From: Zanthoxylum bungeanum
Taxonomy: Eukaryota; Streptophyta; Magnoliopsida; Sapindales; Rutaceae
DNA length: 64,000 nucleotides
NCBI GenBank assembly: GCA_019454045.1
Contig: SKCR01051206.1
Span: forward strand, 124,001-188,000
Direction: 5' to 3'
The stretch's first letter is position 1, and every line of letters starts with the position of its first letter. The position numbers and the translations under genes are program-made. Below are positions 8,786-46,983 of the stretch, in pieces. The notes under the pieces were generated by a model. That model saw only the letters and a program-made list of their open reading frames with translations. It was not told where the DNA came from and did no database searches.

Positions 8786-10902
8786 TGATGAGCGGAAAAT
8801 ATATCAATATTTATCGCCCTTTTTACTTAATATTTTGTTTAGTTTATCGTGTTTGATGAACGTTTTGATGTGTTTTAGTTTATTTTACAGATAAAATAAT
8901 ATTGGGACTAAATGGAATCATTTAGGACGAAATACTGGTAAAATAAGGGCAAAAATATGGACTTGACATATTAATTTTGGAGATTGGAAACTTGAAAGGG
9001 CGTTCTAACGACGTGCGATTTCAGAAATTTCAGTTTTGCGCAACTGTCATATTTTGGGTATAACTATTTACTCCGATATCGGATTGAGCTGATTCAAGTT
9101 CCAGATTAAAGAACACTCAAAGATCTACATCATTGAAGAACAAAATAATTTCTAATTCTGAAGATTTCATAAACTAAATCGATGAAACATCCAGAAGTGT
9201 ATTATGCTTAATTATTAAAGTCATTTTCAAAGTAAAAAAAAAAAATATATATATATATATATATAAAAATAGTCAAACTCTCACCAAACATGATAGAAAT
9301 TAATAATGGATTTGTTGGAGCAATTAGTGGAGTAATTAATAATGGATTTGGTGGAACAATTAGTGGAGCAATTAATAATGGATTTTGTGGATGATTTGAT
9401 GGAGGTAAAATTTTGCCTATAAATACCAAGCCATTTCATTTGTAAATTTATACTTTCTTCTTTGAAATTCCTTAAGAATAACTAAGAAGATTGTATCTTT
9501 CTTTGTTTATTTACAGTTTTCAGTAAATAATTTCTGCTTTCGCACTTTCTTTTCTTTACTTTTCAATTTTTACTTTCCGCAATTTAGTTTTACGCACAAT
9601 ACTTTCCTTTCTTTACTTTTTTCAGTTTTTACTTTTCAAACAATGAGGAGGTAACTCCCCCTTGCTGGGGTAAAAGGTAAATCTTTTATTATTGCTATTT
9701 AGATTAATCTCCCCTAATTATAATATATAACTATTTAAAATCTGACTTAACGAGGATACCGCCATATTGGTCGGTTGGTAATTAATTATAAATTGGTTTT
9801 AACCTGACTAAGCATGGATACCGCTTGTTGGTCAGTTGGTAATTAATTATTAATTTGACTTAATCAGGATACCGCCTATATGGCTGGTTGGTAATTATCA
9901 CACAAAGTTAATATATTATATTAAGGGAGATATCTAAAATAGAAGTAATAAAAGTGGATACTTTTACCTCGGTATTTTCTTTTATTGTACTTTTACTTTA
10001 TTTAATTTTCAGCAATTTACTTTCAGCATTTACTTTTCAGTAATTACTTTCAGCATTTACTTTTCAGCATTTAAATTTCAATATTTAATTTTCAGAATTT
10101 TCTTTCCGTCATTTACTTTTAAGTATTTAATTTCCAGCAATTTAGTTTGTCTTTTATTTTATTTAAGCTTTTACTGCCCGTAAATATGTGTCGTAACTAA
10201 GTCAGTTATCTGGGGATGTGATGAAGTCCAATATCACCGGTTTATAAGGGGTTAAATTACGGTTTGGGTAATATAAAGGTTTATTTATTGAGCCTTAGCC
10301 TTAATGCATCTTGTTAACTGGCCATTAATAAGATTGATTCAGTAAACTTAAAATGAACTTGGAAAAATGGATTTTAGGTTTAAGACCTTAGACTTTAATA
10401 GCCCACGATCTTCCTTGAGGATAGATAACCGTTTAATAGATTTCCTTACAGGATAAGAATATACCTTTCGAGCGGGGGTATCCATAATTGGAACTTAATC
10501 TTAATTAATTCAGATAACTTAATTGACATAGGAATATGATTAATTGGGTTACACTGGGTGTTTGTATCTGACCATCGAAAGAGGCTTTTACATAATTTCG
10601 TGTTCCAGGTTAATAAACCAATATATTACACAACCGTAAGATAACCACTTCATTTTTAAAAATATATTGGAAAGATTCACAACCCTGGATAGTTTTATAA
10701 AATTGAATTTTCCTAAATCTACTTTCAAGCAATTTCATTTACTTGTTTTAAGTTTAAAGTCACCATCCAATCAATAAACAATCCATTAGATACTTGTAAA
10801 AATTCGACTTCATAAATTAATAATAAAAGGTTTTAGTCCTTGTGGGATCACTACTTGAACGATACGTGCGCTTGCGTTATACGCGTGTGAAAACGCCGGT
10901 CA
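8786..10902 (+). repeat. Athila-1 5' LTR
   Basis: It begins tgatgagcgg and ends gccggtca; the start and end trinucleotides TGA and TCA are inverted. It matches 58781-60891 nearly base for base by eye. It contains a TATA box (9417), a run of 'tttactttcagca'-type repeats (9500-9640, 9990-10150) and a block of three imperfect 'ggataccgcc...ggttggtaattaatta' repeats (about 9750-9900) that the Athila-2 LTRs lack. Confidence 0.9.
9417..9425 (+). promoter_or_regulatory. Athila LTR TATA box
   Basis: ctataaata lies in the context ttgcctataaataccaagcc. The same box is present in all four Athila LTRs (also 59398 +, 39548 - and 21718 -), so it is the likely core promoter of the family. Confidence 0.6.
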
Positions 10903-10909
10903 AGTTTTT

Positions 10910-20556: not shown

Positions 20557-20561
20557 GTCGA
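20557..20561. repeat. Athila-2 target-site duplication gtcga (left)
   Basis: gtcga precedes the LTR end at 20562 and is repeated at 40161-40165. Removing the insert rejoins the Tat-1 integrase reading frame. Confidence 0.95.
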
Positions 20562-22335
20562 TGACCGGCGTAAACACACACGTATAACGCAAGCGCACAT
20601 ATCGTTGAAGTAGTATAAAAATATCGATCCCACGAGGACTTAATATCTAATCTATTATTTTATGAGGTCAAATGATTACTAGTATCTAACAGGTTGTTTG
20701 ATTAATTTGAAATGGTGACGATTCTAAATTTAAAACAAGTAAATAAAATGGTTCGAAAGTAGGTTTTAAGAAAATTCAATATTAAAAACTATCTAGGGTT
20801 GTGATTTCTTCCAATATCATTTTAAAGATGAAGTGGTTATCTTAAAGTGGGTAATATATTGATTTATTAACCTGGAATACTAAATTATGTGTAAGCCTTT
20901 ATCGATGGTCAGACACAAATACCCATTTAACCTAATTGAACCATATGTCTATGTCAACCAAATTATCTGGATTCATTAAGTTTAAGTTCCAATTATGGCT
21001 ACCCCCGCCCGACAAGTATATGTCTATCATGTAAGGAATCTATTAAAGGGTTATATATCCTCAAGGAAGATCGGGGACTATTGAGTCTAAGGTCTTAAAC
21101 ATAAAATCCCTATGTCTAGTTCATTTTAAGTTTCCCAGTTCAATTTTATTAATGGCCAGTTAATGAAAACACATTAAGATTAGAGACTCAATAAATAAAT
21201 CTTTATATTATCCAAGCTATAATCTAACCCCTTATAAACCGGTGATATTGGAGTTCATCACAACGCAAGATAATTGGCTTAGGTTACGACACATATTTAC
21301 GGGCAGTAAAAAAAACTTAAATAAAATAAAAGACATAAAGTATAATACTGAAAATTAAATACGAAAAGTAAATGCTGAAGTAAATGCTGAAATTAAATGC
21401 TGAAAGTAAATGCTGAAGTAAATAATGAAAATTAAATGCTGAAAGTAAATTACTGAAAAGTAAATTGCTGAAAGTAAATTGCTGAAAGTAAATTGCTGAA
21501 AGTAAATTACTGAAAAGTAAAAACTGAAAATAAAGAAAGAAAAGTACTGTGCGTAAAAGTAAATTGCGGAAAGTAAAAACTGAAAAGTAAAGAAAAGAAA
21601 GTGCGAAAGCGAAATTAATTACTGAAAGCTGTAAATAAACAAACAAGATACAATATTCTTAGTATTCTTAAGGAATTCCGTAGAAGAAAGTATTAATTTT
21701 ACAAATGAATGGCTTGGTATTTATAGGTAAATTTTGCCTCCATCAAATCATCCACCAAATCAATTATTAATTGCTCCACTAATTGCTCCACCAAATCCAT
21801 TATTAATTGCTCCACTAATCTCTATCATGTTTGGTGATGATTTGATAATTTTTATTATTTATTTATTAATTAGTTTTTTGCTTTGAAAATGATTGAAAGT
21901 GACTTTAATAATTACACACAACACACTTCTGGATGGTTCATCAATTTCGGGCATGCAATTGTCAGAATTCGAAATTATTTTGTCTTTCAAAGATGTAGAT
22001 CTTTGAGTCTTCTTTAATATGGAACTTGAATCAGCTCAATCCGATATCAGAGTAAAAAGTTATACCTAAAATACCACAGATGCGCAAAACTAGAATTTTC
22101 CAAAACTGCACTTCGTCAAAAACGCCCTTTCAAGTTTCCAATCTCAAAAATTAAAATATCAAGTCCAATAATTGCCCTTATTTGACCCATATTTCGTCCT
22201 AAATGATTTCATAGAGATCCGATATATTTTATCTGTAAAATAAACTAAAACACATCAAAACGTTCATCAAACCCGAGAAACTAAACAAAATATTAGTTAA
22301 AGGGCGGTAAATATTGATATATTTTCCACTCATCA
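20562..22335 (-). repeat. Athila-2 3' LTR
   Basis: It reads tgaccggcg...actcatca on the plus strand and is near-identical to 38383-40160. It includes the 'gaaagtaaattgctgaa' short-repeat run at 21340-21610, which produces a spurious 109-codon frame, and a TATA box at 21718-21726. It lacks the ~330-bp triple-repeat block found in the Athila-1 LTRs. Confidence 0.92.
21718..21726 (-). promoter_or_regulatory. TATA box, Athila-2 3' LTR
   Basis: tatttatag on the plus strand is the complement of ctataaata, at the same place as in the other Athila LTRs. Confidence 0.55.
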
Positions 22336-23014
22336 CACCCCCAAACCTAACATTTTGCTAGTCCTCGAGCAAAACAATAAAATAAAATACAAGAAACAAT
22401 AAAATTAAACTTAGCCACTTTCGTAGGGATCACGGTTGCATTTAGCATATGCAACAAGCCTTTAAACCCTTAGGTGTCCCTAGTGGACGAGTTATAGTCT
22501 CGTGAGGGCTTACAGCAACGATACCCACAAACGGTTTACAAAAGTAAAAAGGTAGTGAAACTAATGCACACAAAAGTAAAAAGACAAGCGAAAAGAGATA
22601 GTGATGTTAGTGACTAATCAGGTGAAACTTCTACTCCAAGTTACTAGTTGTTTTGTTTCATTCTAAATTACCGAATAAGTAAATTCTCCGATTATTTTTA
22701 CCATTCTCATATACACAGCCAAAAAAATATTAAACAACTCATTTTTGCCCACAACAGTCATAAGTGCAGTTGATAAGAGAGTAATATTTTTGTCCTGAAG
22801 TTCTATCAGATTTCACAACTTTTTGCAGCAATTGAATAATTTTTTGATTTTTTTCTGATTTTTTTCTTTGATTTTTCTCTATTTTTTATTTATATACAAT
22901 ATCTTCCATCTATGTAACAAGTTTTAGGTCGGTGGCTCCCAAACCAGTTTGCTTTAGAGCACCAGGTGTTAAGACACCCCTACGGACTTAATTACTCAGA
23001 CTTCAGAGATATAT

Positions 23015-23045
<31 letters not shown>

Positions 23046-23675
23046 TTTTGCAGCATCTTTGATCCATGTAGCGAGCTTTGGTTTAGTGACTCCCAAACCA
23101 GTTGGTTTTAGGGCACTAGGTGTAAAACACCCTTACAGACTTAATCGGATCTTAGATTTTTTTTTTTACCCATTGCTTTTTTGAGATGCTTCCTCCAATT
23201 AACTAGAGCACTGAATATTACAAACTTTTCAATTACAGTTCATGTCCGTATGTTTCTATGTATGTTGATAATATCTACTAACTGAACATATGAAGATCCA
23301 TTTTAGTCCGTTTTATGGAGAATTTACAAATTAAATAATTTAAAAGGAAAGAAACAAAAATTAACTGATTTCGAAAATAGGCTTGAGATACATCTCAGAA
23401 GTGGAAACTCCTTACTCAGCCATCTCTTACCAATTTCACCCTTTTAGTCAAAATAAAAACACAAAAACATAAAATAATTTTGTAATTTTTGAAATTTTTT
23501 TTGTATTTTTCGAAAAAATTTGGACTAAAAATAAAAACAACACACAAACTAAAAACAAGGTACTGATCAACTAATTCCCTCCCCTAAACCTAAATGAGAT
23601 ATTGTCCCCAATTTTTTAAAAAGTAGAAGAAGAGTTTAGAAAATAATACCTAGTTAGCTGAAATTCTACAGGAAA
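22336..23675 (-). other. Athila-2 3' untranslated region and polypurine tract
   Basis: The minus-strand 'ggtttgggggtg' at 22336-22347 is the polypurine tract, preceded by 'gctcgaggactagcaaaatg'. The rest is AT-rich. Around 22930-23140 a ~110-bp segment with 'cctacggacttaattactca' is present twice, separated by an (AT)n run at 23011-23045. The same duplicated segment exists in Athila-1 at 57990-58230, so it predates both insertions. No gene is seen. Confidence 0.75.
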
Positions 23676-24329
23676 TTAAAGGTTAAGATCCAGATTAATC
23701 CTACGTCTCTTACCACGATCGTCCTCAGACCAATTTATCTTTGAAACGATAGGGTCAACTCGTGGTTCATAGGCTATGAGTTGGTCTATTAGATCCGGAG
23801 CAGTTCTGGCAGTAAATAGGAGTTCTTTCAAAGGTTTTGACATGAACCCATTTCTCCGGGCATCATCAAGAAACACACAAAGAAAATCATAAAATCCATC
23901 AACGTTGTACAGCCCAATTGGTTTCTGGTGTATGTTCAGGTTCACCCAAAATAACACAATAAAAATTTCCTCCAATGTACCCAAGCCACTTGGCAAAGCA
24001 ATAAAAGCATCAGCACGGTTAATCATTTTTACCAAACGTTCAGACATACCTGGAACGATCAGTTCCTCTCCGTTTGATGGTTCAATAAAATTTGCTTCTA
24101 CCAAGTGTTTTGGGATGATTCCCAAAACGTGACTGCCTCCTTCCTGTACAGCTTTTGAAACGATCCCCATAAGTCCAAGATTTCCTCCGCCATATATTAA
24201 GTGCATATTTCTTGCAGCTAAGACTCGACCCAATTCTTGTGCTGCTTCTACGTATTGTGGCTTAACACCAACACTACTACCGCAAAACACACAGATATTT
24301 TCAACTCGTCTTCTTAAAGTGGCTTCCAT
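23676..24329 (-). CDS. LOG-like cytokinin phosphoribohydrolase carried by Athila-2
   Basis: This is an open, intronless frame of 217 codons, the normal length of plant LONELY GUY proteins, which release active cytokinin bases from nucleotide precursors in cytosol and nucleus. Family marks are NICVFCGSSVG (11-21), IYGGGNLGLMG (45-55), an Arg in GMSER (98), ADAFIALP (106-113) and GLGTLEE (115-121). The usual PGGxGTxxE loop reads PSGLGTLEE, so its second Gly is Ser at 114, while the catalytic Arg and Glu are kept. The C-terminus is unusual: GKRRR (206-210), then LDLNL (213-217), an EAR-like repressor motif. Host LOG genes have several introns, so capture of a spliced transcript is likely. It lies after pol, where env-like genes sit in Athila. 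Enzyme activity is untested; whether the host expresses it is unknown. Confidence 0.88.
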   Translation of the reverse strand: MEATLRRRVENICVFCGSSVGVKPQYVEAAQELGRVLAARNMHLIYGGGNLGLMGIVSKAVQEGGSHVLGIIPKHLVEANFIEPSNGEELIVPGMSERLVKMINRADAFIALPSGLGTLEEIFIVLFWVNLNIHQKPIGLYNVDGFYDFLCVFLDDARRNGFMSKPLKELLFTARTAPDLIDQLIAYEPRVDPIVSKINWSEDDRGKRRRINLDLNL

Positions 24330-24596
24330 TTTTTATATGTATTTCTTTCTCAACTATGGATGCCTTCAAAAGTGCAATGACGGGCTGAATTTATAGTACC
24401 TGAAAAGGGTGAGTAATAATAGCACTAGTATCTTCCAGAGGACGTTTGTTAGCTAAACAACAAAAGAAATCGTGAAAGGTCAAAAAGTCTGGATCTGTCT
24501 ACGAAAACAAAATAAAAACAACATAACAAATTATAATTATTAAGAAAAGACAAAAAGATATAATATTTACAAGAAAAGTAACGGCTTGATTGATGT
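24330..24596 (-). promoter_or_regulatory. Leader upstream of the LOG-like gene with acceptor-like site
   Basis: On the minus strand 'cacccttttcag' followed by gtactataaattc lies about 65-80 bp before the ATG and resembles a 3' splice site. The same block (acccttttcaggttttataa) precedes the pseudogene in Athila-1 at about 56792. Splicing from the element's leader is one way the downstream gene could be expressed; this is inference. Confidence 0.35.
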
Positions 24597-25145
24597 CTAT
24601 GCGTCAGAGACAAGCTTCCCATCCAATTTTCTTATAAATTGGCAAACACGGTATTTTTGAGTCAGATTCCCGAGACTTAACAGTTGTCTTTCCTTTTGGA
24701 ATTGTGCATATAACATGCGAATTTCATGATACACACATCCACTGGGATGCGTCTCAAGAGTTTTCGATATGTCATCCAAAGACTCCTTACTCAAGCCATC
24801 CCTAATGAAATTAATTTTATCTTAGCGGTTATCATACACCATTCCTAAAGAACGACAACGAGTATTACAAAACATACGAGCATATTTATAACAAACACAC
24901 ATTCTTTTGGCTCTTCTCTTTTTAGCATATGTGCTCTTTCCTAAACCAGGCAGATGTGAAATAAAAGAGTCAGAAGAATCACCTGCCAATCGGACCCGTG
25001 CTTCAATAATCCAACGAATGTCAGTAGGAATACCTTTGATCATCAGTAGTCTCATCCGTTCCAAGCGAGCTTTGTAGACTTTCATCAGAGATTTTTGAGG
25101 GAGAGAAGGAAATTGCTTGTGAAGATTTGCGAGAGCTTCTTCCAT
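24597..25145 (-). pseudogene. Unrecognised 182-codon frame with one internal stop
   Basis: It starts MEEALANLHKQFPSLPQ and ends RKLDGKLVSDA, with a single in-frame TAA at 24822-24824 (codon 108). The Athila-1 copy has GAA at that codon, so the stop is a private mutation and the ancestral protein was continuous. It is basic in the middle (AKKRRAKR, then CVCYKYARMFC with three spaced Cys). No signal peptide, membrane segment or known domain is evident. It lies between the integrase tail and the LOG gene. A splice-acceptor-like 'aatttttgcag' sits just upstream (minus strand, about 25158-25168) and is shared with Athila-1. It could be an env-like remnant or a second captured gene; I do not recognise it. 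Confidence 0.6.
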
Positions 25146-25284
25146 CGTGAAATGAGTTAACCTGCAAAAATTAAACACACAAAAAATAAAACACACCAGA
25201 TCACAATATATACACAAATTGCATGGGCTGCCTCCCTGCGAGTGCTAAGTTTAAAGTCGTCAGCCAGACTTGACTTCTCGAACG

Positions 25285-25716
25285 TTAAACTGGATCTGAA
25301 AGTGTAACACTTTCTTTTTGTCTCTCAAATGATTCTCCCCAGTAGTGCTTGACACTCTTGTTTTTAACCTTGAAAGTTTTGTTGGAGTCAGGATCATGTA
25401 TCTCAACGGTTCTATCTGGTAAAACTTTGGTGATCACAAATGGACCTGACCACCGTGATTTTGGCTTCCATGGGAAGAATTTCACCCTTGATTTGTTTAA
25501 CAGTACCTTCTGCCCTGGTTCCAGTTGTATGCGCACTAACTTCTCATCATGTCTTTTCTTGCCCTTTTCTTTGTACAATTTGGCATCCTCAAAATGATGA
25601 TTGTGAAATTCCTCCAATTCGTTGAGCTGGTTGAACTTTTTCTCTATTGTTGCTTGTAGTGCAAGAATTGGATTCTTTAGTACAAAAGACGCTTTATCTT
25701 TAGGGTCCACAGACAA
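25285..25716 (-). pseudogene. Athila-2 integrase C-terminal tail fused to protease
   Basis: The segment EEFHNHHFEDAKLYKEKGKK, KWSGP-like SRWSGPFVITKVLPD and VKHYWGESFERQKE is the chromatin- and DNA-binding tail that closes gypsy integrases (GPF/Y-type). Here it follows the protease frame in the same phase across a single TAA at 25747-25749, with no RT, RNase H or integrase core between. Athila-1 shows the same fusion with CAA-type sense codons at that place, so the junction is inherited. Confidence 0.85.
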
Positions 25717-25746
25717 TTGACATGTTTTAAGTTTGTTAGTAGAACT

Positions 25747-26668
25747 TTACATTGCATTGGAGTTTTGAATGGTACTATGTATCACATCGAGTTTGAAACA
25801 TTCCTCATTCTTTTCATCATCTGGGAAATTCATGGCCTTGAAAACATTGAATGTTACTTCTTGGTCATGTACCCTCATGGTTAGTTCTCCTTTTTGTACA
25901 TCAATAATGGTTCGACCAGTAGCCAAGAATGGTCTCCCGAGGATGATTAGCACGTCTGCGTCTTCCTCCATAACAAGGATAATAAAATCTGCTGGGAAAA
26001 TGAATTTGTCAACCTTGACCAGCACATCCTCAACTACGCCTCTTGGAAATACGAGCGTTCTATCAGCAAGTTGTAGTGAGACTGAAGTGGGCATTGTTTC
26101 TCCAATCTGTAGTTTCCTGAAAATAGAAAAAGGCAACAAGTTAACACTAGCACCTAAATCACACAGAGCCTTACCGAAGTCATGTTCTCCTATGGTGTAA
26201 GGAACATTGAAACTGCCAGGATCTTTCAACTTTGGAGGAAGTTTTCTCTGAATGATGGCGCTGCATTCTTCTGATAATGCTACTGTCTCATAATCTCCCA
26301 ATCTCCATTTTCGTGAAAGAATGTCTTTCATGAATTGGCATAGCTGGGCATTATTCCAATGCTTCTGCAAATGGAATGTTGATATGCGCTTTTTGAACAC
26401 CTCCAATAATCGAGCAAACTGCTTGTCCAGTTTATTCTTCTGAAGACGCTGAGGAAAATGTGGAGGTGGAGTGAGTATATGTTCTTTTTTCCTTTGTTTT
26501 TTTTCTTTTCTCCATCTATTGCTTTGTTTCTTTTGGAAAATCTTCAATGGTTGTTGCCTTGATTCCAACATCTTTGTTATTTCAGTAGTATGCTTTTTAA
26601 CATGATGGCATGACATTACTCCTTCCCCATGTTCCTTGGATTGGCTCTGTATTGCTAGGAAGGGTACT
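25747..26668 (-). pseudogene. Athila-2 gag C-terminus and aspartic protease
   Basis: The open stretch 26616-25747 includes KFMKDILSRKW-like sequence, then GEHDFGKALCDLGASVNLLP, whose D-L-G-A is the aspartic protease active site of Athila elements, then PADFIILVMEEDADVLIILG and GRPFLATGRTIIDVQKGELT. It continues the gag gene split by the copia-type insertion (other half at 36913-38267). One frameshift lies between the insertion point and 26616. Confidence 0.88.
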
Positions 26669-26673
26669 TGGCG
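26669..26673. repeat. Target-site duplication tggcg (left) of the copia-type element
   Basis: tggcg precedes the LTR start at 26674 and is repeated at 36908-36912. Confidence 0.95.
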
Positions 26674-28797
26674 TGTTGGATAATATGACCCATAGCGTCA
26701 CTATTTGTACAGATCACGGTGTTGTTGTATAAATTAACTATGTGACAAGGAAATTGCACTCTCATCATTGTGATTAGATCACCATAGATATATAAATGAA
26801 GAGAGGTCCATATGATTAGTTCCTGGATTGAGAATGATATGAGACAGTATCAGTCAAAAGGTAATCATTAAATATCCCTAGCCGGAGTATATTATCAAGA
26901 CAGGACATCGATAATGCGGAATAGGCTAGTATTGCACTTGTGCGCGTTGTGAGGGCACAACGGCATAGTTCTCATATATATAAGTATTGGATACTTATGC
27001 AAGTGCGATAGGAGGTCGTGTTTCACCGATGGTACGGGAAACAGCTTCTCTTGGATAGACCCCTCGGAATCCCATTGGTATTATGACTATGTGTCTATGG
27101 GAGGCCGAAATCAGGGTAGTTGTGTATAGTCTTAACCTGAGACTTACATCGCTAATACTTGCGATAATCGGTAGACTTTGGTCTTGGTGGTACAGGGCTT
27201 TAACCGGTTCTGCGTACACCACTTCTGGGTTTATCAGAGAGTCGTAGTGTATTGGGTGTGATGTCAAGACGGAAGTATCACTTCAGTCATATTGGAGATG
27301 ATGTCACGCAGGATACGGTATTAGTGCTCTTAAGTGCTGCGCGGCCATCGGGATATTATGACAAGGTCATGTATATCCGATTATAGAGACTAGTTACCAG
27401 ACATCCGACATGTGCTTCGGACGGGGCAGACACTTATCCAGCCCTAGCACGTGACTATCCGATACTGGGCCGATATACAATACTACGATATACTACGCTG
27501 GATACAGATCTATATATTTGTAAGAATATTTCTGGAGAATTGGGTAGGCATGGCGCTTTGCTAGAAGCCAACCTTGTCTTGTAAATCGGTATAAACGTAG
27601 TAGTAAGGGTACTTACGTGTTCGGATAGTCCGACGACCGTATTTACTGCCAACATATCGGGAGATCTCATGGGTCGCTTCCTGAAGATTCACCGATGATG
27701 TATGACTCGCACTATAATTAATCTGGATTAATTAGTAGAGAGAGAAGATAATTTCAGAAAGAGAAAATTATCTGGGATTAATTACGGAGATATTTTATCT
27801 CGGATAAAATATTAATTACAGAGAGAGAACGATTAATTTGGAATTAATCGATAAAATAATATATTCGATATATTATAAGAAATTGGATTTCGACGCGGAA
27901 TTAAAATTAGATTTTAATTCGGGCGAACAAATTAATTTAGAATTAATTCGTTAGCGACGTGAATAGTGATTTCGCTAGGCGTAATCATTTAATTACGACG
28001 CGACAGAAAATTCGTTAATTTGGAATTAGCGAACCCGAGCCCGAGAGTGATTGCGAGCGCATTCGCATTTCGAATTTGAGTGCGGTACGCAAGTCGCATC
28101 AAGCGTCAAATCGTTAGTCGCGTCAATTGTCAAATCACTGTCACTTTGAGTGATGTGATATGATATGTTGTCACTTTATTAAAGTGAAGTGACTTGATGT
28201 AAAAAGTAGAAGTGATAGGTGAAAAGTTGAAAGCTTTTTACTTTTGCTTTTGACTTTTTAATTAATAGTTTTGTTATATATTTTATTTATATTACTTGGT
28301 AAAAAAAAGATAAATAGAATGAATACAAAAGAATAACTCTCTCTCTCTCTTCACATGTGATTCACGGTTTTAGGCTTTTGGAGCCAAAACCCTTCATCTT
28401 TCTCTCTTCTCCCTCTCACGGTTTCAAGCCGATTTCTTCACAAAATTTTCTGGTTTGACCGAAATTTTGAGAAGCAAAGAAGAAGAGTAGTGCTAGCACA
28501 CATGGGTTATATTATGGTGATAGGGAAACGAATTTGTGAGCTTGGATTATTTTGGAGCTTGAAGCTTGAGCTTCCATGGAGTCTCCATGGCCGAATCTTG
28601 GAGGAATTTCACAGCCAAAACCGAGCAGTCCAGCAGTTCACAGGAGCCAAACCGAGCACCAACAAGGAGGAAAACGCATCTGTTCTTCCTAGCATCAAAC
28701 CCATCAATGTGAGTATGTATTCCGCCTTACTCCTTGGTTGTATTCAACTCGTTTTTATGCATGATTTATGATCTTGGGACTTGATTGAAACTCAACA
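26674..28797 (+). repeat. 5' LTR of the copia-type element
   Basis: 2124 bp long, tgttggataa...gaaactcaaca. Related LTRs are at 2606-3998 (partial) and 62046-64000 (inverted), so the family has at least three insertions in the window. ORFs 26995-27267, 27455-27670 and 28490-28771 recur in all LTR copies in broken form and are not genes. Confidence 0.93.
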
Positions 28798-28798
28798 A

Positions 28799-28811
28799 TG
28801 GTATCTTGAGC
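28799..28811 (+). other. Primer-binding site (iMet-like)
   Basis: tggtatcttgagc starts 1 bp after the LTR; compare tggtatcagagc. Confidence 0.75.
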
Positions 28812-31800
28812 TATTGGTTGCATAAAACGAATTGAGCTAAATTTTGGGCTTTTTGATTTAAGCATGATTTTGACAAATTGTTGTTTAAGAATGCTTGTAT
28901 ATGAATAAATTAGAGTTATATGTAATCAATTTGATGAAAAATTAATGGATTGATTTTCCCCAATTTGCTTAATGTTGGCCAAAACTTTAATTTGGGTAAA
29001 CTCAATTTGAGCATCAAATGATTAAATTGTTTAGTATAGTATGCTTGAATGAGGTTGAATTGATGTTGTGCATAATCAATTTCATGAAATTTTGTTTGGA
29101 TCCATTTTTCCCAAATTTTGGGCATGACAAATTTGGGTAAACTTGATTTTGAGCATGTTTAATGAAATTGGATGATTTAGAATGCTTTAATGTTGTTTAA
29201 TTGATGATTGATTAGATCAATTTGATGAAAAAGTGTTTGGAACAATTTTCCCCAATTTGCTTGTGATGGCCGAAATATGATCCCTAAAATTGTCTTGTTT
29301 TTTTGATTTTTTGTTCATTGGATGACTTACAAATCATTTGGGGATGTTGAATTTATTTAATTGGGTTCAATTGGATTGAATTTGATTTGGGCATAATTTC
29401 CCTCTTTGGCCGAGACACTTGAAGCATGAAATTGGGTTTGATTTTGATTTAATTATGTTGGACATGATTAATTGATGTTAAGCATGATTAATTGGACAAA
29501 TTGATGTTTTGGAAACTTTGATTTGGGCAATTAATAATGCTATACACTTTAGGTAATTTAATTGGAAAATTTGGAATTTTTGGAATTAAATTATTGGGCT
29601 TAAAATTGGATTTGGGCTTTCAAAGTTGTTATTGGGTTTATTGGACTTTGTTGTACAAAGTTGGTTTAGGCCAAATTGGTTGGATCCAATTAGGCCCAAA
29701 ACCGCTTCCAAAAGGCCCAAATGCGACTAATGAACCTTTAACGTTTAATTGGGCCTAATGGGCCTAAATTAATTTATGGGCTTATGGGGTAACTCCCGGA
29801 TTGGACTTTGGTTGCGGGTTTGACCCGAGTTGACCAAAAGTCCACGCCTCAAGAAATTAATTAAAAGCCCATTGGACTTTAATTAAATTAATATTGGATA
29901 TTAATCGGGCTTTGAGACCCGTAACGATTAAATTTGGAATTTAAGTCGTAAAGGTTTATTTTATAAAGTGTAATATTTAATTGGAATTAAATAATGAATT
30001 AGAATTAAATACGTATTAAATTGGATTTAATCATGTAATTTAATTTAATTAGTAGAAATCGTACTTTGAGTACGTGTTCGCAATACGAGTTTGACTCGAA
30101 CAAAATCAAATCTTTGTTTGAACATTGGATGATCACTAATTATCAAGATTAATTAATTGATTAGATTGATTGATAACATGCTTGTATGAATACATGGTTG
30201 TGATGTTTGAATAATGTATATCGGATGGATATTAGCGGGTGGGGCGATTTTAGAAATTGTTGTAATAAATTTGATTTATTAATTGGACCTGCGTGTCCAG
30301 CCTTATCTCCTATTTCTTGTATTCTCTTCTCACCTATTCCCCTCCATGTAAATGAGGTTTCTTTAGAAGTGTAGTGTAACGGGTAGAAGTAATTACATGT
30401 GCTAGCTTGGAGAGAGAAAATGAGAGATTTGATCTAGGATCAATGTAAAGTATCCATCCGCATATCATTATTATTTTTTCATATGCGCTTTATTATGTGT
30501 TTAGAATGCATGTTTAAGGGTGTATGATGATGAGACCTTAACAAAGATAATTAAAATTGGTAGCCAATTTGCACGCGAAAAACCCTCGTTAAATATCAAG
30601 CGTTTATTTTCCTTCCATTGAGTGATTCTTACTCAAGATCCGAGATTGGCAGGGGTTGTTGGCCAAAGTCAAGCCCTTGTCCGTCGAAGATTTTTTAATC
30701 ACGAGGCTTTGTTCCATATCGGTGTCGTGTCCAAGTTGTGGTTTGTTGGCCAAAGTCAAGACCACTTCTTGTCCATTGACATTGATTACGAAGCTTCCAT
30801 GTCAATGGGTCCGCGCTTGACTGGGATCACTAGGTTTGTTGTGCCAAAGCCAAGGCCTAGTTGATTCAGAGGAAAAAGGTTAGGGTATACATTCGATGTA
30901 TAGGCATATATAAGATATATGTTTGGGACTTGGATGTCCACCTACTGGATCTAGGAGTTGGATGAGATCCAATTGATCTTCGAGATCTACCTAGTTAATT
31001 ATCATACAATTTGTTGGCCAAAGTCAAGATTGTGTGATATTTAACGGGATCCTAGCCCACTAGGAAACACGGTTTCCCGAGTACTCGACAGAGGGTTAGA
31101 GGCTCGACGAAAAATAGTGGGAGGCAAGAATTGAATTTGCAATACTCGTTCAATTACTCGCCATACGCGCTCATTTAAATTATTTCGTCATTAGATTAAA
31201 TGTTAGTTGGACTAATATTTAAATTGTTGTTTTAATAAACAGTTGGACTGTATTATACTTGATTATATATAATTGGATTATATTAATCAATATATTTGAA
31301 TTAATTAATTTCAGTTTACAGTTGATTTTATAATTGGATTATAGTAATCAATGTAATTGAGGTTAATTAATTTGGATTATATAGTTGGACTATTATAATC
31401 ATTATAATATATATAGTACCACTAATCGTTGATTAAATAGTTGGACTATTGTAATCAAGATAAAATTGAAAAGTTGGATATTTAAAATATAATCTGGGAT
31501 TGAAATATTTTAAATGATTTAATTTTCAAATTGGGAATAAATAATAGGTTACTTTATTTGATAAAATAACTTATTATACCTTAAGCCCAAAATTAAGCAA
31601 AATAAGTAGAGCATAAAATCTTTGGAAGATTTATGTGATGATGACTTTAATGCTTAATTTAATATACTTGTATAAATCTAATTTTAGATTTAAGAAGTAT
31701 TAAAATTGCAATTTATAATTCTTGGAGAATTAATTGACTATTCTAGAGGAGATAAAGTCAAAGTTTGCAATTGGGCATGTAGCACGAGGTGCACATCGTT

Positions 31801-32439
31801 TCGATATTCTAAAACCCAAGGCTTGGCCTAAGGTTTCTGAAATATTGAAAGGATAATTGACATATCCCAAAGTGACTACCATTTGGATATGGCAGACACG
31901 AAGGAATTAAAGAAAGGGCGAAGGCTCTAACTTTAAAAAATATTTGTCTTAGTTATGTTCACAGCTAGTATTGAAATTAGATTTTAAATACTTAGTGTGG
32001 TACATAAAATATATGTATTGATGTTCAGAATCTGCTTTGAGCAGGATACTGACTTCAAGCTGAGATTGCTCTGCGAATCGGAAACGGGACGAAAGTCGCT
32101 GTTTCGACCGTAGATACCTAAGTTTAGGAACTACCCTTGGGTATATACTTAAATTAGGAACTGTTATAATGTAACTAGTTTGACTAGAGACATTATCTCT
32201 ATATCAGTGTTTAATCCGTTGCGGATAAAACCTTTATATTATAGAACACTAAGTGTTTTATTATATAAGATGATACTGAGATAAATACATTAGATGTAAA
32301 TAACAGAATTTATATTTTGAATATAAATAAAATCTCAAACATATAAAATGACAAATAAATAGCTCAAATTGATTTGATCAATAGAGACTTATTTGTGGCA
32401 TTGTTGTCTAGGACACAATTTAACGAGACTCGTATATCC
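28812..32439 (+). other. Non-coding interior of the copia-type element
   Basis: About 3.6 kb without a recognisable frame. It contains a ~145-bp repeat in three diverged copies ('caattt-atgaaa...tttgg...ttttcccaa' at about 28927, 29077 and 29218) and a scattered 'ttgttggccaaagtcaag' motif (about 30657, 30744 and 31012, and a variant near 30838). Gag is not recognisable anywhere in it. Confidence 0.7.
28927..29290. repeat. ~145-bp diverged tandem repeat, three copies
   Basis: A 'atcaatttgatgaaa' start and a 'ttttccccaatttgct' core return at spacings of 150 and 141 bp. Confidence 0.7.
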
Positions 32440-34764
32440 ACACTTTTGAAGAGTGGGTACTAGGACTGATTTGACTATTCAAATAAGGTCTGCGAATCTA
32501 GTTTATTAGGTAAAGTACCTAAAATACTATTTACTTGGTAATAGTAAAAGGGCCACCGATCTGTTAGCCCTATTCATGGTGAAGTAAGTGGGCCCATATC
32601 TAGCTAGGCTAGATGTGAACATGAATATTTCGTGACCCTTAACGGATGTGGCATCACGTTATGGTTATGTGTTTCTTTTGAAGAACACAAATCGGAAACT
32701 TTTAGAGTTTCGACACGAAATAGACAAACAGATCGGCTATAGTATTATACCGTCACGGTAAGACCGTAATGGAAAATACTTAAGCAATAAGTTTCTTATA
32801 TACTTGAAAGAGTATAGTATTCTTTCAAATGAGGACTCCTCCGGAACACGTCAAAGTGACGGTGTGTCCGAACGGATTAACCGAATCATGTTAGACATGA
32901 TAAGGCTAATCATGAGTCGCTCTGAGCTACCATTTCCTTCAATGGATAAGTTTTAACAGTGCAATAACTTATTTAGAATAAGGTTCCATATAATCTGTTT
33001 GACAGATTCATATTAGGATATGAACGGGAAAGAAACGAGGGTTTCTCATTCCTGATAATTTGGGTATGCCAGGCATAACGTTTGGATGATACCAAACTAA
33101 GGACCCAATTGGATAAGTGCCAATATAGGTTATCCTAAGGGAAACCATAAGTATAGTACTTATAAATCTCACATGAGAACAATGTGATTGTTGCTCACCA
33201 TGCGGTTTTTCCTGAGAGGAATACCGATATGCAGTGGTCAGTGGGAGGATAGTGATACTCGATGAAAATCGAGTAGTAATACTGTTCAAGGCACGAAGTC
33301 CTTAATGGAACACAAATAGTTCATCAATGATGAATCTGTACCATTAATCTTCGAATACACAAGAACTGAGTAGATCGGATAGAGTCAGAAAACAACCTAG
33401 GGTATGGGTTTCTGATCTAACCTCATAAAGATGTCAATCTTATGAAGGTATACCACCGACTACGTTTTGAGGAAGTGATACGAGGTATCGACTCCCTATT
33501 ATGGCAAAGTGCCATGAGTCCGAAATGGATTCCATGTATAACAACTATTTGGATACTAGTTGTTGTACCACAAGGCATTGTGCCTATTGGTACATTAACG
33601 TCTTCAAGGAAGACATACATGGAAGGCAACATACCAACGTACAAAGCTGGGCTTTTGACGGAAAGGTATCGTTATCAACATTGTGTTAATAACGGATTCA
33701 ACCTTTTACCTGTTGCCATGGTAAATCCATTTTGAAGATGCTTGTTGATAACTGCATATTTCATTTATGAAATGTGTCAGTTGCAGATCAAAATCGCTTT
33801 CCTGAAAAGGAAACCTTTTGGAGGATGCTTACAACATCCTGACGATTTTGTAAACCGACAAACAAGGTTTGCAGGTTATTCGATCCATGTTTGGATTGAA
33901 GCAAGCATAAGGTTCTTGGAATTATCGTTTTGAAATAATCATAATGGTTTATGATTTAATTCAAAACGAAATAATTCTTGTGTATATAAGGAGGTTAGTG
34001 GGAGGGCACTGACACTGATAATGAAATTCCCATAAGCAATCGGTGAAAGCTTGGCTTTCATAAGAAATTCTCCGTATAAATTCTGGGGAGTAACAACCTT
34101 TATTCAAGGAATAAAGATCTACTGGGATAGATTTGGAGTTGTTAACACTCTCTGGAAATTGTACATTTAAAATGTACTTGATATGGTGTCTCATACGCTT
34201 TGAGCATATGGAGTCACAATCGGGTCAATCCAAGTGATAGTCACTGGATTGAAGATTAAGAACATCTGTTAGTATTAGAGAACTAAAGATGTTGTCTTAA
34301 ACTATGGAGTAGGAGAACTTGAAGTGACTAGGATCACTGCTGCAAGTTTCCAAACCGGTAAATACTGTGGTACTATAAAAGTTTGAACAAGGGACAGTGA
34401 GCTGGAAATATTCCGAGCAAGATAACTGTTGCCGAATAACAACAAATGCGGATTATTGCTGCAGCTGAGGCAGCAATAGAAGCCATTTGGATCGAAAATA
34501 AATCTAATTAGATTAGATATAGTTCTTTTAGCAGCTGAGCTAGGCGTCAGCACAGGCTAAGGAATTAAAGGTCTCATCGACGATCCAGATATATACTTCT
34601 ATATCATCTGATTCGTTCGGATCATACATCGTGGTGATGTGATGATCGTATAAATCGCGTCAGAAGATAATTAAGCAAATCCGCTGACGAAAATCGTTTC
34701 TCAGCAATTTGAGCGAACCGTACATAGTTCGGGTGTTAGACACTTGAGTGACTGGCTATGTGCC
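32440..34764 (+). pseudogene. Fossil copia pol (integrase, RT, RNase H)
   Basis: Homology survives as short blocks across many stops and frameshifts. GAG-pre-integrase CESSLLGKVPK is at about 32491. PIHGEVSGPIS and YGYVFLLKN mark the integrase (about 32567-32710). EMDSMYNNYLD and GIVPIG mark the RT start (about 33500-33590). RNase H-like AASFQTGKYCG is at about 34335, and the pol tail LTK...SSGVRHLSDWL is at about 34670-34755. Nothing here could be translated as an enzyme. The decay contrasts with the intact, near-identical LTRs, so the element must have been copied using enzymes from another element. Confidence 0.82.
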
Positions 34765-34775
34765 AAGTGGGAGAT
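34765..34775 (+). other. Polypurine tract of the copia-type element
   Basis: aagtgggagat directly precedes the 3' LTR; the copia element at 55819 has the same tract. Confidence 0.85.
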
Positions 34776-36907
34776 TGTTGGATAATATGACCCATAGCGT
34801 CACTATTTGTACAGATCACGGTGTTGTTGTACAAATTAACTATGTGACAAGGAAATTGCACTCTCATCATTTGTGATTAGATCACCATAGATATATAAAT
34901 GAAGAGAGGTCCATATGATTAGTTCCTGGATTGAGAATGATATGAGACAGTATCAGTCCACGAAGGATTAATCATTAAATATCCCTAGCCGGAGTATTAT
35001 CGAGACAGGACATCGATAATGCGGAATAGGCTAGTATTGCACTTGTGCGCGTTGTGAGGGCACAACGGCATAGTTCTCATATATATAAGTATTGGATACT
35101 TATGCAAGTGCGATAGGAGGTGTGTTTCACCGATGGTACGGGAAACAGCTTCGCTCTGGATAGACCCCTCGGAATCCCATTGGTATTATGACTATGTGTC
35201 TATGGGAGGCCGAAATCAGGGTAGGTGTGTATAGTCTTAACCTGAGACTTACATCGCTAATACTTGCGATAATCGGTAGACTTTGGTCTTGGTGGTACAG
35301 GGCTTTAACCGGTTCTGCGTACACCACTTCTGGGTTTATCAGAGAGTCGTAGTGTATGGGTGTGATGTCAAGACGGAAGTATCACTTCAGTCATATTGGA
35401 GATGATGTCACGCAGGATACGGTATTAGTGCTCTTAAGTGCTGCGCGGCCATCGGGATATTATGACAAGGTCATGTATATCCGATTATAGAGACTAGTTA
35501 CCAGACATCCGACATGTGCTTCGGACGGGGCAGACACTTATCCCCCCCCTAGCACGTGACTATCCGATACTGGGCCGATATACACAATACTACGGTATAC
35601 TACGCTTGATACAGATCTATATATTCCTGTAAGAATATTTCTGGAGAATTGGGTAGGCATGGCGCTTTGCTAGAAGCCAACCTTGTCTTGTAAATCGGTA
35701 TAAACGTAGTACAAGGTACTTACGTGTTCGGATAGTCCGACGACCGTATTTACTGCCAACATATCCGGAGATCTCATGGGTCGCTTCCTGAAGATTCACC
35801 GATGATGTATGACTCGCACTTTAATTAATCTGGGATTAATTAGTAGAGAGAGATTAATTTCTAGAAAAGAAATTAATCTAGGATTAATTACGGAGATATT
35901 TTATCTCGGATAAAATATTAATTAAAGAGAGAGAACGATTAATTTGGAATTAATCGATAAAATAATATATTCGATATATTATAAGAAATTGGATTTCGAC
36001 GCGGAATTAAAATTAGATTTTAATTCGGGCGAACGAATTAATTTAGAATTAATTCGTTAGCGACGTGAATAGTGATTTCGCTATGCGTAATCATTTAATT
36101 ACGACGCGACGGAAAATTCGTTAATTTGGAATTAGCGAACCCGAGCCCGAGAGTGATTGCGAACGCATTCGCATTTCGAATTCGAGTGCGGTACGCAAGT
36201 CGCATCAAGCGTCAAATCGTTAGTCGCGTCAATTGTCAAATCACTTGTCACTTTGAGTGATGTGATATGATATGTTGTCACTTTATTAAAGTGAAGTGAC
36301 TTGATGTAAAAAGTAGAAGTGATGGGTGAAAAGTTGAAAGCTTTTTACTTTTGCTTTTGACTTTTTTAATTAATAGTTTTGTATATATTTTATTTATATT
36401 ACTTGGTAAAAAAAAGATAAAATGATATACAAAAGAATAACTCTCTCTCTCTTCACATGTGATTCACGGTTTTAGGCTTTTGGAGCCAAAACCCTTCATC
36501 TTTCTCTCTTCTCCCTCTCACGGCTTCAAGCCGATTTCTTCACAAAATTCTAGTTTGACCGAAATTTTGAGAAGCAAATGAAGAAGAGTAGTGCTAGCAC
36601 ACACATGGGTTATATTATGGTGATAGGGAAATGAATTTGTGAGCTTGGATTTATTTTTGGAGCTTGAAGCTTTGAGCTTCCATAGAGTCTCCCATGGCCG
36701 AATCTTGGAGGAATTTCACAGCCCAAAACCGAGTAGTCCAGCAGTTCACAGGAGGCCAAACCGAGCACCAACAAGGAGGAAAACACATCTTGTTCTTCCT
36801 AGCATCAAACCCATCAATGTGAGTATGTATTCCGCCTTACTCCTTGGTTGTATTCAACTCGTTTTTATGCATGATTTATGATCTTGGGACTTGATTGAAA
36901 CTCAACA
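34776..36907 (+). repeat. 3' LTR of the copia-type element
   Basis: 2132 bp long and near-identical to 26674-28797 with scattered substitutions and small indels (for example near 34952 and 35860). Confidence 0.93.
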
Positions 36908-36912
36908 TGGCG

Positions 36913-38267
36913 GTCTGTAACTCTGAGCATTCGCCAGTTGTCCAATTTGATTCTCCAGTGCTTTAATAGAAGCTGATTGACTTTGAATTAATGCTGCTTG
37001 GGATTGAATCATAACATCATATCTTGCTGCTTGAGATTGAAACATAGCATCATATCTTGCTGCTTGAGAGTCGTGTTTTGCTTCTATCTTTTTCAAGTGG
37101 GTCAACAATTCTGTTATTCCTGGTTCATTTGCCTGTTCCTAGCTTTTGTTCTGTTGTTGGAATCCGGGTGGTGGATTGTTCATTTGCCCTGAATTGTTGC
37201 TCCATGCGAAATTGGGATGATTACTCCACCCTGGGTAGTAGGTGTTGGAATATGGATTGTTCCCCTGTCTGTTGAAATTATTGACATAATTCACCGTTTC
37301 TTTATGTTGGTTGAAAGATTCTGACTTAGGTGCTCCTCCAAATGGTGAACTTGTGGATCCACCATTAACTTTTATGTTAAGAGTTTCCAGATTTTTGCAA
37401 ATCACATCCAGCTTGGAATTCAGTGCTGTGTTGGCTCCAACTTAATAAATTCCTGCAATTCTTTGGATCATGCTCCTTTCTATTGGCCATAAAGAATTAT
37501 TTTTGGCCATTTCTTCGATTAGGTCCCAAGCTTCATCTTATCATTTTGCCATTAAAGCTCCTCCAGCAGCAGCATCGATTGTGGTTCTCATTATTCTAGA
37601 AAGTCCATTATAGAATGTTTGGACTTGAAGCCATTTTGGAATCTCATGGTGATGACATTTCCGGAGCAAATCTTTGTACCTTTCCCAAGATTCGCAGAGG
37701 GATTCTGAATCTTGTAGTACAAAGGATGTGATGTCATTCCTCAGCTTTCTGCATCTGGCTGGTAGAAAGTACTTTGCAAGAAATTTGGTGGCTAAAATGT
37801 TCCAAGTTGTGATAGAACCTGCTGGTAGTGAATGTAGCCAAGCTTTAGCTCTGTCCTTCAAGGAGTATGGGAAAACACGCAGTCTCATTGCTTCTTCTGA
37901 TGCTCTGTTATAGTTGAAAGTGCCGCAAACTTCCAGGAAGTTACTGATGTGGGCATTAGGATCTTCAGTTGCCTTCCCCCCGAACTGAACTGACTGCTGA
38001 ATCATCTGAATGCATGTTTTGATGTCACACGTATTTGCTGGTAAAGGAGGAAGTACAATACATGAAATGAGTCTGTCAACCACCGGAATTGTTCTGTCTC
38101 GAATTGGAATTGGTGCTGCAACCTCTAACGGTTCAGGTTCCATGTTGACTAAAGCTTCTTGGCCTTCTCGCCTTTCCATTCTCAACTGTCTGATGGTTCT
38201 TTCAATTTCTGGGTCAAGCGATCGGAGTTCAAAGCTTCTGGTTCGTCTCATGTAGTTTCTGAGAACC
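36913..38267 (-). pseudogene. Athila-2 gag, N-terminal part
   Basis: The ATG of MRRTRSFELRSL is within the open frame 38275-37541. Capsid motifs are TEDPNAHISNFLEVCGTF and KAWLHSLPAGSITTW. In-frame stops at about 37541 and 37443 are the only breaks; the frame stays in phase through NNPYSNTYYPGWSNHPNF and a QSQAARYD-type glutamine-rich repeat to QLANAQSYRP, where the copia-type element is inserted. An acceptor-like cag precedes the start as in Athila-1. With the part at 25747-26668 it makes the gag-protease gene of the element. Confidence 0.88.
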
Positions 38268-38358
38268 TGAAACACAAGAAAACCAAAACAATAAGTAAAA
38301 AGAAATTAGATACAAGTAACGTATCTAACCCCAAAATTAATAGTGAAAGATAAATAAG

Positions 38359-38376: not shown

Positions 38377-38382
38377 AAAACT

Positions 38383-40160: not shown

Positions 40161-40466
40161 GTCGACCTGTAAAAGCCTTGTCTTGTTATCCTGCGAGACA
40201 AATTCAATCTGTTCATGTGCGGTCCAAATACTCTGGCATGTACTTCTTCCATTGCCTTCTGAGCCTCTTCTTTTCTTAAACACTTCAGCTGGATGCCATT
40301 CGCTTGTCTCTTGTATAGTTCTCCCTTCAAACTCACATATTGAGAAGCCAACTTCTGAATGGCTATCATGTCCTTTCTGCTTGCTTTTTTTGGAAGTTCC
40401 CCGCATTCTAAGTATCGCTGAATTTCATAGTACCAAGGTTTCCCATCGTAGACCTCTACTTCCAAG
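40161..40466 (-). pseudogene. Tat-1 integrase N-terminal region (RNase H-integrase linker)
   Basis: Open frame 40465-40121 on the minus strand reads KPWYYEIQRYLECGELP, then YKRQANGIQLKCLRKEEA and ITRQGFYRST, the usual linker and zinc-binding N-terminus of gypsy integrases. It stops being integrase at 40161, where Athila-2 is inserted, and continues at 20556. Confidence 0.85.
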
Positions 40467-46436: not shown

Positions 46437-46983
46437 ATGGAAGTGCTCTCATAAATCTTCACAAGTAATTTCCTTATCTCCCTCAAAATTCTCTGATGAA
46501 AGTTTACAAAGCTCGCTTGGAGCGGATGAGACTACTGATGATCAAAGGTACGTCTACTGACATTCATTGGACTATTGAAGCACGAGTCTGATTGGCAGGT
46601 GAGTCCTTTGACTCTTTTATTTCACATCTGCCTGGTTTAGGAATAATCATATATGCTAAAAAGAGAAGAGCCAAAAGAATATGCGTTTGTTATAAATGTG
46701 CTCGTATATTTTGTGATACTCGTTATTAATCTTTAGGAATGGTGTCTGATAACTGCGAAGATGAGATTAATTTCATTAGGGATGGCTTGAGTAAGGAGTC
46801 TTTGGATGACATATGTAAAACTCTTGATACGCATCCCAGTGGATATGTGTATCATGAATTCGCATGTTATATGCACAATTCCGTAAAGAAAGACAACAAT
46901 TAAGTCTTGGGAATCTGACTCTAAAAGACCTTGTTTGCCAATTTATAAGAAGATTGGATGGGAAGCTTATCCCTGACGCATAG
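46437..46983 (+). pseudogene. Athila-1 copy of the unrecognised post-pol frame
   Basis: Collinear with 25145-24597 of Athila-2. A TAA lies soon after the ATG (codon 6), there is a further break near DICKTLDTHPSGYVYHEF, and the frame closes at 46981-46983. It keeps a sense codon (GAA) where Athila-2 has its stop. Acceptor-like 'gtttttacag' ends at 46420, 16 bp before the ATG. Confidence 0.7.

What the first reader, a model, noticed from the sequence alone, without database searches (positions are those of the whole stretch)
23676..24329. A retrotransposon family that carries a cytokinin-activating (LOG-like) gene
Athila-2 holds an open, intronless 217-codon LOG-like gene at the position after pol. 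Athila-1, an independent insertion, holds a broken copy at 56853-57507 in the same place with the same flanks. The gene was therefore captured before both insertions and has moved with the element. Intronless form suggests capture from a spliced transcript. Plant retroelements rarely carry hormone-metabolism enzymes, and expression could alter local cytokinin levels or be neutral cargo.
Basis: partly seen in the sequence, partly recalled or inferred. Interest (0 to 1): 0.93.

Follow-up and report, generated by a model that had tools for sequence, protein, structure and literature searches.

The report
Retrotransposon family carrying cytokinin-activating gene
A very abundant plant retrotransposon family carries, as a regular and selectively conserved part, an intronless gene resembling the enzyme that activates the hormone cytokinin, next to a gene resembling a plant-virus nucleic-acid-binding protein; similar elements were already reported from citrus.

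Summary
The LOG-like frame is real: 217 codons, minus strand, 23676-24329, intronless, in sense with gag. It lies in an Athila-like LTR element (20562-40160, duplication TCGAC). A second, independent insertion (8786-60891, duplication ACCAG) holds a broken copy in the same place. LOG is a regular part of the family. A 26-base LOG word (up to 2 mismatches) occurs 28,623 times in this 3.96-Gb genome, and 0 times reversed. All 12 copies fetched by their noncoding flank carry it. It occurs in three element architectures, two of them apparently without reverse transcriptase and integrase. It evolves under purifying selection: dN/dS is 0.36 in the flank-anchored sample and 0.20 in the LOG-ranked sample, against 0.93 for adjacent noncoding DNA. 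Host LOG genes have introns and are at most about 50% identical. Between integrase and LOG lies a second conserved frame matching carlavirus-type nucleic-acid-binding proteins (6 of 6 unbroken copies, best E 7e-7; 0 of 9 shuffles). LOG (YgdH) domains in Citrus and poplar Gypsy elements are in print, so the principle is known. I found nothing in print on the copy number, the non-autonomous forms, the selection test or the virus-like neighbour. Enzyme activity is untested; the window copy breaks the PGGxGTxxE motif.

The parts
23676..24329 (-). LOG-like ORF, 217 codons, open, intronless
56853..57507 (+). broken LOG copy in the second element (stop at codon 25, three 1-base indels)
20562..22335 (-). 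3' LTR of the element holding the LOG ORF (Athila-2)
   Evidence: 94.1% identical to 38383-40160
38383..40160 (-). 5' LTR of Athila-2
20557..20561 (.). target-site duplication TCGAC (minus-strand reading), 3' side of Athila-2
40161..40165 (.). target-site duplication TCGAC (minus-strand reading), 5' side of Athila-2
8786..10903 (+). 5' LTR of the second element (Athila-1)
   Evidence: 92.2% identical to the 3' LTR; duplication ACCAG at 8781-8785
58781..60891 (+). 3' LTR of Athila-1
   Evidence: duplication ACCAG at 60892-60896
37541..38275 (-). gag ORF of Athila-2 (PF03732, E 1.2e-18)
26674..36904 (.). stretch not homologous to other copies: nested insertion splitting Athila-2
25747..26616 (-). 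gag-protease region of Athila-2 (protease named by eye; no Pfam hit)
25285..25746 (-). integrase C-terminal remnant (named by eye and by alignment to the pol of L020); RT, RNase H and integrase core absent
24600..25145 (-). ORF2 of Athila-2, degenerate (one stop); unbroken copies match carlavirus-type nucleic-acid-binding profiles
46445..46980 (+). ORF2 of Athila-1, broken (three stops in its longer match)
24390..24395 (-). TATAAA box 66 bases before the LOG ATG; a TATAAA at 47-74 bases in 25 of 26 copies
22336..23675 (-). noncoding stretch between LOG and the 3' LTR; part used as neutral control and as flank anchor

Best explanation
An Athila-like Ty3/gypsy lineage captured a spliced plant LOG transcript long ago and kept it as an extra gene after pol. 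SHOWN: LOG is a regular part of a family with tens of thousands of LOG places, in sense with gag-pol, in pol-bearing, RT/integrase-deleted and a third element architecture, and its codons are conserved while elements propagate. INFERRED: open copies make a LOG-type enzyme from their own mRNA (a conserved TATA box and acceptor-like sites lie just before the ATG). It would release active cytokinin in cells where the element is transcribed, favouring division and so element replication and inheritance. The neighbouring carlavirus-type protein would act in the same direction (silencing suppression, cell proliferation). Step by step: cargo and maintenance about 0.95; LOG-type catalysis by open copies about 0.6; benefit through cytokinin about 0.35.
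For: 28,623 places of a LOG word against 0 for the reversed word; 28 of 28 LOG-ranked loci and 12 of 12 flank-anchored copies carry LOG; dN/dS 0.355 (0.25-0.52) flank-anchored and 0.196 (0.14-0.27) LOG-ranked against 0.93 (0.74-1.18) noncoding; low in each architecture: 0.145, 0.216, 0.226; R98 and E121 invariant in 8 of 8 aligned open copies; host LOGs intron-broken; independent insertions with TSDs; TATAAA in 25 of 26 and acceptor-like sites in 24 and 21 of 26; ORF2 profile matches in 6 of 6, 0 of 9 shuffles.
Against: No expression or activity data. 9 of 12 flank-anchored copies are broken or truncated. PGGLGTLEE in only 7 of 13 copies of that sample plus Athila-1. The family reads MSERL where solved LOGs read MHxRK. 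NCBI's LOG equivalog model scores 111 against a cut-off of 300. The element LOG is almost as close to Pseudomonas LOG (47.8%) as to AtLOG3 (49.0%) and lies outside plant LOGs in the tree. The shuffle control of ORF2 does not exclude a chance zinc-finger likeness.
Confidence: 0.6

Rival explanations
1. Neutral cargo: LOG hitch-hikes, and its conservation only reflects recent amplification of a few source elements.
For: Most flank-anchored copies are broken (9 of 12); LTR ages are young; LOG-ranked sampling inflates conservation.
Against: dN/dS well below 1 in a sample not chosen by LOG, while the noncoding flank gives 0.93; signal in all three architectures; the older Athila-1 branch also gives dN 0.115 against dS 0.418.
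Confidence: 0.12
2. The protein is kept for another reaction than cytokinin activation, for example 5'-ribonucleotide phosphohydrolase or general AMP/nucleotide hydrolysis.
For: Family change MSERL against MHxRK; equivalog cut-off not met; plant LOGs include enzymes that mainly make iPR (passages of PMC11593424).
Against: PGGxGTxxE, R98 and E121 retained in open copies.
Confidence: 0.25
3. LOG was acquired from a bacterium, not from a plant transcript.
For: Outside plant LOGs in the tree with 99% support; 47.8% identity to Pseudomonas LOG.
Against: Pairing with either bacterial LOG rejected by the AU test at p about 0.036 (only 5,000 resamplings, below the program's advice; SH rejects none), placement inside plant LOGs not rejected, p 0.12-0.39; the genome-contig scan confirmed no relative; long branch.
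Confidence: 0.1
4. The two window copies arose by segmental duplication.
For: They share flanks.
Against: Different duplications, LTR divergences and strands; one nested in the other; dS 0.52 between the two LOG copies.
Confidence: 0.01

Closest known systems
YgdH/LOG-domain Gypsy elements of Citrus sinensis, C. clementina and Populus trichocarpa (PMC9289625 section 12, citing Steinbauerova et al. 2011, not held)
   Same: A LOG-type domain inside plant Ty3/gypsy elements; I recall the 2011 abstract calling them Athila-like with similarity to LOGL4.
   Different: There: domain detected in consensus sequences. Here: copy number, three architectures, selection, and a virus-like neighbouring frame. 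The sequences could not be compared.
Plant LOG enzymes (AtLOG3 2a33, AtLOG8 1ydh; host LOGs L029-L048)
   Same: Fold family, PGGxGTxxE, R98, E121, length.
   Different: Intronless, at most about 50% identical, MSERL instead of MHxRK, moves with an element.
Carlavirus-type cysteine-rich nucleic-acid-binding proteins (PF01623, PF05515)
   Same: ORF2 matches both profiles over a basic stretch and a cysteine cluster.
   Different: In a retrotransposon, modest E-values, partial coverage, direction of transfer unknown.
AlkB-bearing Gypsy elements of Phalaenopsis (PMC9289625)
   Same: An added enzyme domain fixed in a Gypsy lineage.
   Different: Another enzyme (RNA demethylase), tested in vitro there.

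Membership tests
LOG family (cytokinin riboside 5'-monophosphate phosphoribohydrolases) | LOG/YvdD-type profile (PF03641, TIGR00730) | tested here: met
   117.7 bits; 168.2 bits, cut-off 96.35
LOG family (cytokinin riboside 5'-monophosphate phosphoribohydrolases) | PGGxGTxxE motif | tested here: inconclusive
   Kept in 24 of 25 LOG-ranked copies; the window copy reads PSGLGTLEE; exact PGGLGTLEE in 7 of 13 others
LOG family (cytokinin riboside 5'-monophosphate phosphoribohydrolases) | Arg98 and Glu121 (catalytic role recalled) | tested here: met
   Invariant in 8 of 8 aligned open copies, window copy included
LOG family (cytokinin riboside 5'-monophosphate phosphoribohydrolases) | NCBIfam equivalog NF058542 cut-off | tested here: not met
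   111 bits, cut-off 300; window copy only, plant LOGs were not run as a yardstick
LOG family (cytokinin riboside 5'-monophosphate phosphoribohydrolases) | Release of free cytokinin base | not testable with these tools
   needs an enzyme assay
Athila lineage (Ty3/gypsy, OTA) | Gypsy-type pol order with RT, RNase H, integrase; no second RNase H (aRH), which marks Tat | tested here: met
   L020 pol: RVT_1, one RNase H region, H2C2, rve; no further RNase H hit; aRH criterion from PMC6317226 passages
Athila lineage (Ty3/gypsy, OTA) | Position in an RT tree | not tested
   no reference RTs at hand; the name Athila-like rests on structure and recall
Athila lineage (Ty3/gypsy, OTA) | Extra ORF between pol and 3' LTR | tested here: met
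   ORF2 and LOG
Betaflexivirus-type nucleic-acid-binding proteins | Profile match PF05515/PF01623 | tested here: met
   6 of 6 unbroken copies at E up to 0.1, best 7e-7 and 1.2e-6; the one copy whose scores were listed is above both cut-offs; 0 of 9 shuffles
Betaflexivirus-type nucleic-acid-binding proteins | Same fold | tested here: inconclusive
   model mean pLDDT 41.7, unusable
Betaflexivirus-type nucleic-acid-binding proteins | Silencing suppression | not testable with these tools
   needs a bench assay

The most novel reading that the evidence does not exclude
A plant retrovirus-like element with a two-gene host-manipulation module after pol: a plant-RNA-virus-type silencing suppressor and a cytokinin-activating enzyme, each expressed from its own spliced or internally promoted mRNA and kept by selection because together they push cells of the germ line to divide and lower silencing. 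Deleted derivatives keep the module after discarding reverse transcriptase and integrase.
Probability: 0.3. Interest if true: 0.92.

Novelty: new variant of a known kind. Interest (0 to 1): 0.72.

Why it matters
If open copies make active enzyme, one plant genome holds many, perhaps thousands of, dispersed element-driven cytokinin-activating genes beside 29 host-type LOG places found with one exon query (haplotype duplicates included). That makes the open question of what post-pol ORFs of plant retrotransposons do testable with a simple enzyme assay. A virus-type protein fixed beside it would link plant RNA viruses and LTR retrotransposons. For annotation it warns that LOG family expansions in large plant genomes may be retroelement cargo.

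Tried and rejected
Viral scans with LOG, one ORF2 protein and the ORF2 alignment, and a genome-contig scan with LOG, confirmed no relative. Structure models of ORF2 (pLDDT 41.7; six near-identical rows) and LOG (45.4; eight) were too poor, so no fold search was run. A closer host donor was sought with a bait of my own: the best places were known host LOGs at 57-61% and element copies at about 49-58%, so none was found among the 150 scored of 38,709 candidates; the bait was recalled, so this is weak. Segmental duplication was rejected on the target duplications. A genome-wide ORF2 count was tried seven times and never answered. My first check of the copy-number word gave 0 of 38 through a wrong search range; corrected to 36 of 38. 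One search had L004 and L005 with the pol-bearing group; one search showed they belong with the deleted group, and one search gives the corrected values. Rows dropped before counts: L006, L007, L008 and L011; L053; L006, L007 and L008.

Full report
WHAT IS THERE. The frame at 23676-24329 is an open, intronless 217-codon ORF on the minus strand. It is a LOG-type protein: PF03641 at 117.7 bits, TIGR00730 above its cut-off, best solved relative Arabidopsis At2g37210 (PDB 2a33, E 1e-56; the name LOG3 is recalled). It lies in an LTR element on the minus strand. The LTRs at 20562-22335 and 38383-40160 are 94.1% identical and TCGAC flanks both ends. A stretch not shared with other copies (26674-36904) splits its gag from its protease region. 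No RT, RNase H or integrase core is present: the protease region (named by eye) runs into an integrase C-terminal remnant. The second, plus-strand element spans 8786-60891, with LTRs 92.2% identical and duplication ACCAG. Its LOG copy has a stop at codon 25 and three 1-base indels. The minus-strand element lies inside it.

A FAMILY, NOT A PAIR. The host is an unnamed 3.96-Gb assembly of 51,709 contigs. A PF03641 search scored 150 of 47,331 loose candidates; all 150 passed the cut-off. The 28 loci that I hold from that list all carry the frame. Two of them repeat places fetched twice, L005 and L006 are a near-identical pair, and L001, L002, L004 and L015 have one in-frame stop each. Because that list is ranked by LOG score, I drew a second sample by a 601-base noncoding stretch downstream of LOG (40 of 8,555 candidates scored, one of them the window itself) and fetched 12 of the other 39 places. 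All 12 carry LOG in place, 11 over its whole length and 1 cut at the 5' end. Two are fully open (L057, L058), one is open with a 39-base in-frame deletion (L049), nine are broken or truncated. These 12 are near kin of the window copy by their flank, not a random sample. A 26-base word inside LOG, with up to 2 mismatches, occurs 14,399 times forward and 14,224 times reverse, 28,623 in all, and 0 times when read backwards. Of 38 sampled copies 36 match the word, but the word was chosen as conserved in those copies. The count includes fragments and duplicated contigs: it counts places, not genes.

ARCHITECTURES. Pol-bearing: L012, L015, L017, L018, L020, and L014 and L023 by integrase type; L020 has a 909-aa ORF with RT, RNase H and integrase domains. 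RT/integrase-deleted: L010, L013, L016, L019, L022, L026, L027 and the window copy, and L004 and L005 by integrase type; L022 has a 748-aa gag-pro ORF and LTRs 98.2% identical over 938 bases. Third kind: L009, L024, L025 and L028, and L002 and L003 by their breakpoint; another gag-like region lies upstream, no pol ORF was seen in the held stretch, and homology begins about 160-220 bases before the LOG ATG. L001, L011 and L021 were not classed. In the classed loci where gag or pol could be read, LOG is in sense with it. LTR ages at an assumed 1.3e-8 substitutions per site and year (recalled) run from 0.7 My (L022) to 3.2 My (Athila-1); at 7e-9 from 1.3 to 5.9 My.

SELECTION. Pairwise Nei-Gojobori dN/dS: LOG 0.196 (25 copies, LOG-ranked; L006, L007, L008 and L011 left out), gag-pro 0.227 (8), integrase C-terminus 0.233 (16), ORF2 0.362 (16), and the noncoding stretch read as if coding 0.93, bootstrap 0.74-1.18 (25). 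The flank-anchored sample gives 0.367 with all 12 and 0.355, bootstrap 0.25-0.52, with 11 (L053 left out because it shares the stop of L050). Within kinds LOG gives 0.145 (pol-bearing, 7) and 0.216 (deleted, 10), and 0.226 (third kind, 6). The broken Athila-1 copy differs from the 12 by mean dN 0.115 and dS 0.418. So the protein was conserved while elements multiplied, and single copies decay after insertion. Pairwise values share branches, so the bootstrap over codons is only a rough guide. Silent sites of LOG diverge more (0.21) than the noncoding flank (0.085); I have no explanation.

ACTIVE SITE. R98 and E121 are invariant in 8 of 8 aligned open copies; their catalytic role is recalled, though PDB 5zbk differs from 5zbj by Glu to Ala at the column of E121. 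PGGxGTxxE is kept in 24 of 25 LOG-ranked copies and broken in the window copy (PSGLGTLEE); the exact string PGGLGTLEE is in 7 of 13 others (12 flank-anchored and Athila-1). The family reads MSERL where the solved LOGs shown read MHxRK. Catalysis is plausible for open copies, less so for the window copy, and untested.

ORIGIN. An exon query found 29 host-type LOG places (54-90% identity), followed by 121 lower-scoring places that look like element copies. In the 20 host loci that I hold the match is broken into exon-like blocks, and the element LOG runs through, so capture from a spliced transcript is the simplest account. The closest host LOG is 50% identical over 106 residues; AtLOG3 49.0%, Pseudomonas LOG 47.8%. 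In the tree the element LOG lies outside host and Arabidopsis LOGs on a long branch. Placement inside plant LOGs is not rejected (AU p 0.12-0.39); pairing with either bacterial LOG is (p about 0.036), but with 5,000 resamplings, fewer than the program advises, and SH rejects none. Plant origin, old and fast-evolving, is favoured, not proved.

THE NEIGHBOUR. Between integrase and LOG a second frame of about 182 codons is unbroken in six distinct copies held (L005, L010, L016, L017, L022, L027) and broken in both window elements. All six match PF05515 Viral_NABP (best 7e-7) and PF01623 Carla_C4 (best 1.2e-6) at E up to 0.1; the one copy whose scores are listed is above both cut-offs. Nine shuffles that keep the cysteines give no such match. 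The match covers a basic stretch and a cysteine cluster only. Such viral proteins are described as silencing suppressors and pathogenicity factors, and that of chrysanthemum virus B as inducing hyperplasia (passages of PMC12172455, and PMC8742542).

EXPRESSION ANATOMY. A TATAAA lies 47-74 bases before the LOG ATG in 25 of 26 copies, with acceptor-like TTTYCAG|G in 24 and GACAG|GRT in 21 of 26. A U-rich CAG site precedes ORF2 in the 13 copies aligned, by eye. These are resemblances, not shown promoters or introns.

WHAT IS KNOWN. PMC9289625 (section 12 read) reports YgdH domains, as in LONELY GUY proteins, in Gypsy consensus sequences of two Citrus species and, with a filter off, of poplar, citing Steinbauerova 2011. 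That paper is not held; I recall its abstract naming two Athila-like elements with similarity to LOGL4. So a LOG-bearing Athila-like element is known. I saw nothing on selection, copy number, non-autonomous forms or the virus-like neighbour in what I read: section 12 and passages of PMC9289625, part 1 of 3 of PMC7264820, passages of PMC6317226 and PMC11728184, and the listings. Most subscription papers are outside that library.

VERDICT. Observation confirmed, interpretation partly supported: a new variant of a known kind, with an unusual scale and a neighbouring frame that deserves its own follow-up.

Noticed in passing
window 24600-25145 (-), 46445-46980 (+); unbroken in L005, L010, L016, L017, L022, L027: A second frame before LOG matches carlavirus-type nucleic-acid-binding profiles.
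   Followed up: partly
rel 700-1900 after the LOG start, 25 copies (window about 22430-23630): The noncoding stretch after LOG diverges less (about 0.085) than silent sites of LOG (about 0.21); unexplained.
   Followed up: no
L011 (C45283:54000-63900): A 5.5-kb stretch repeated in tandem at 98.6% identity, offset 3.5 kb, with two LOG copies in a row.
   Followed up: no
window 20076-20639 and 40472-42252 (-): Athila-2 lies inside another retroelement: integrase-like ORFs on one side, RNase H-like (PF13456) and gag (PF03732) ORFs on the other.
   Followed up: partly
window 50004-55710 (+): A Copia-type element with near-identical repeated gag-integrase blocks (99%, spacings 1835 and 2277).
   Followed up: no
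window 15457-16214 (-): Frames that look by eye like pieces of a Ran-type small GTPase; named from recall.
   Followed up: no
deleted-type copies, integrase remnant: The integrase C-terminal remnant still shows dN/dS 0.39 (0.23-0.65) among 10 RT-less copies, so it may still be translated.
   Followed up: no
L025:8456-9103: A second, diverged LOG copy (67% identity) in the same locus; an older subfamily may exist, as L001 and Athila-1 also group apart.
   Followed up: no
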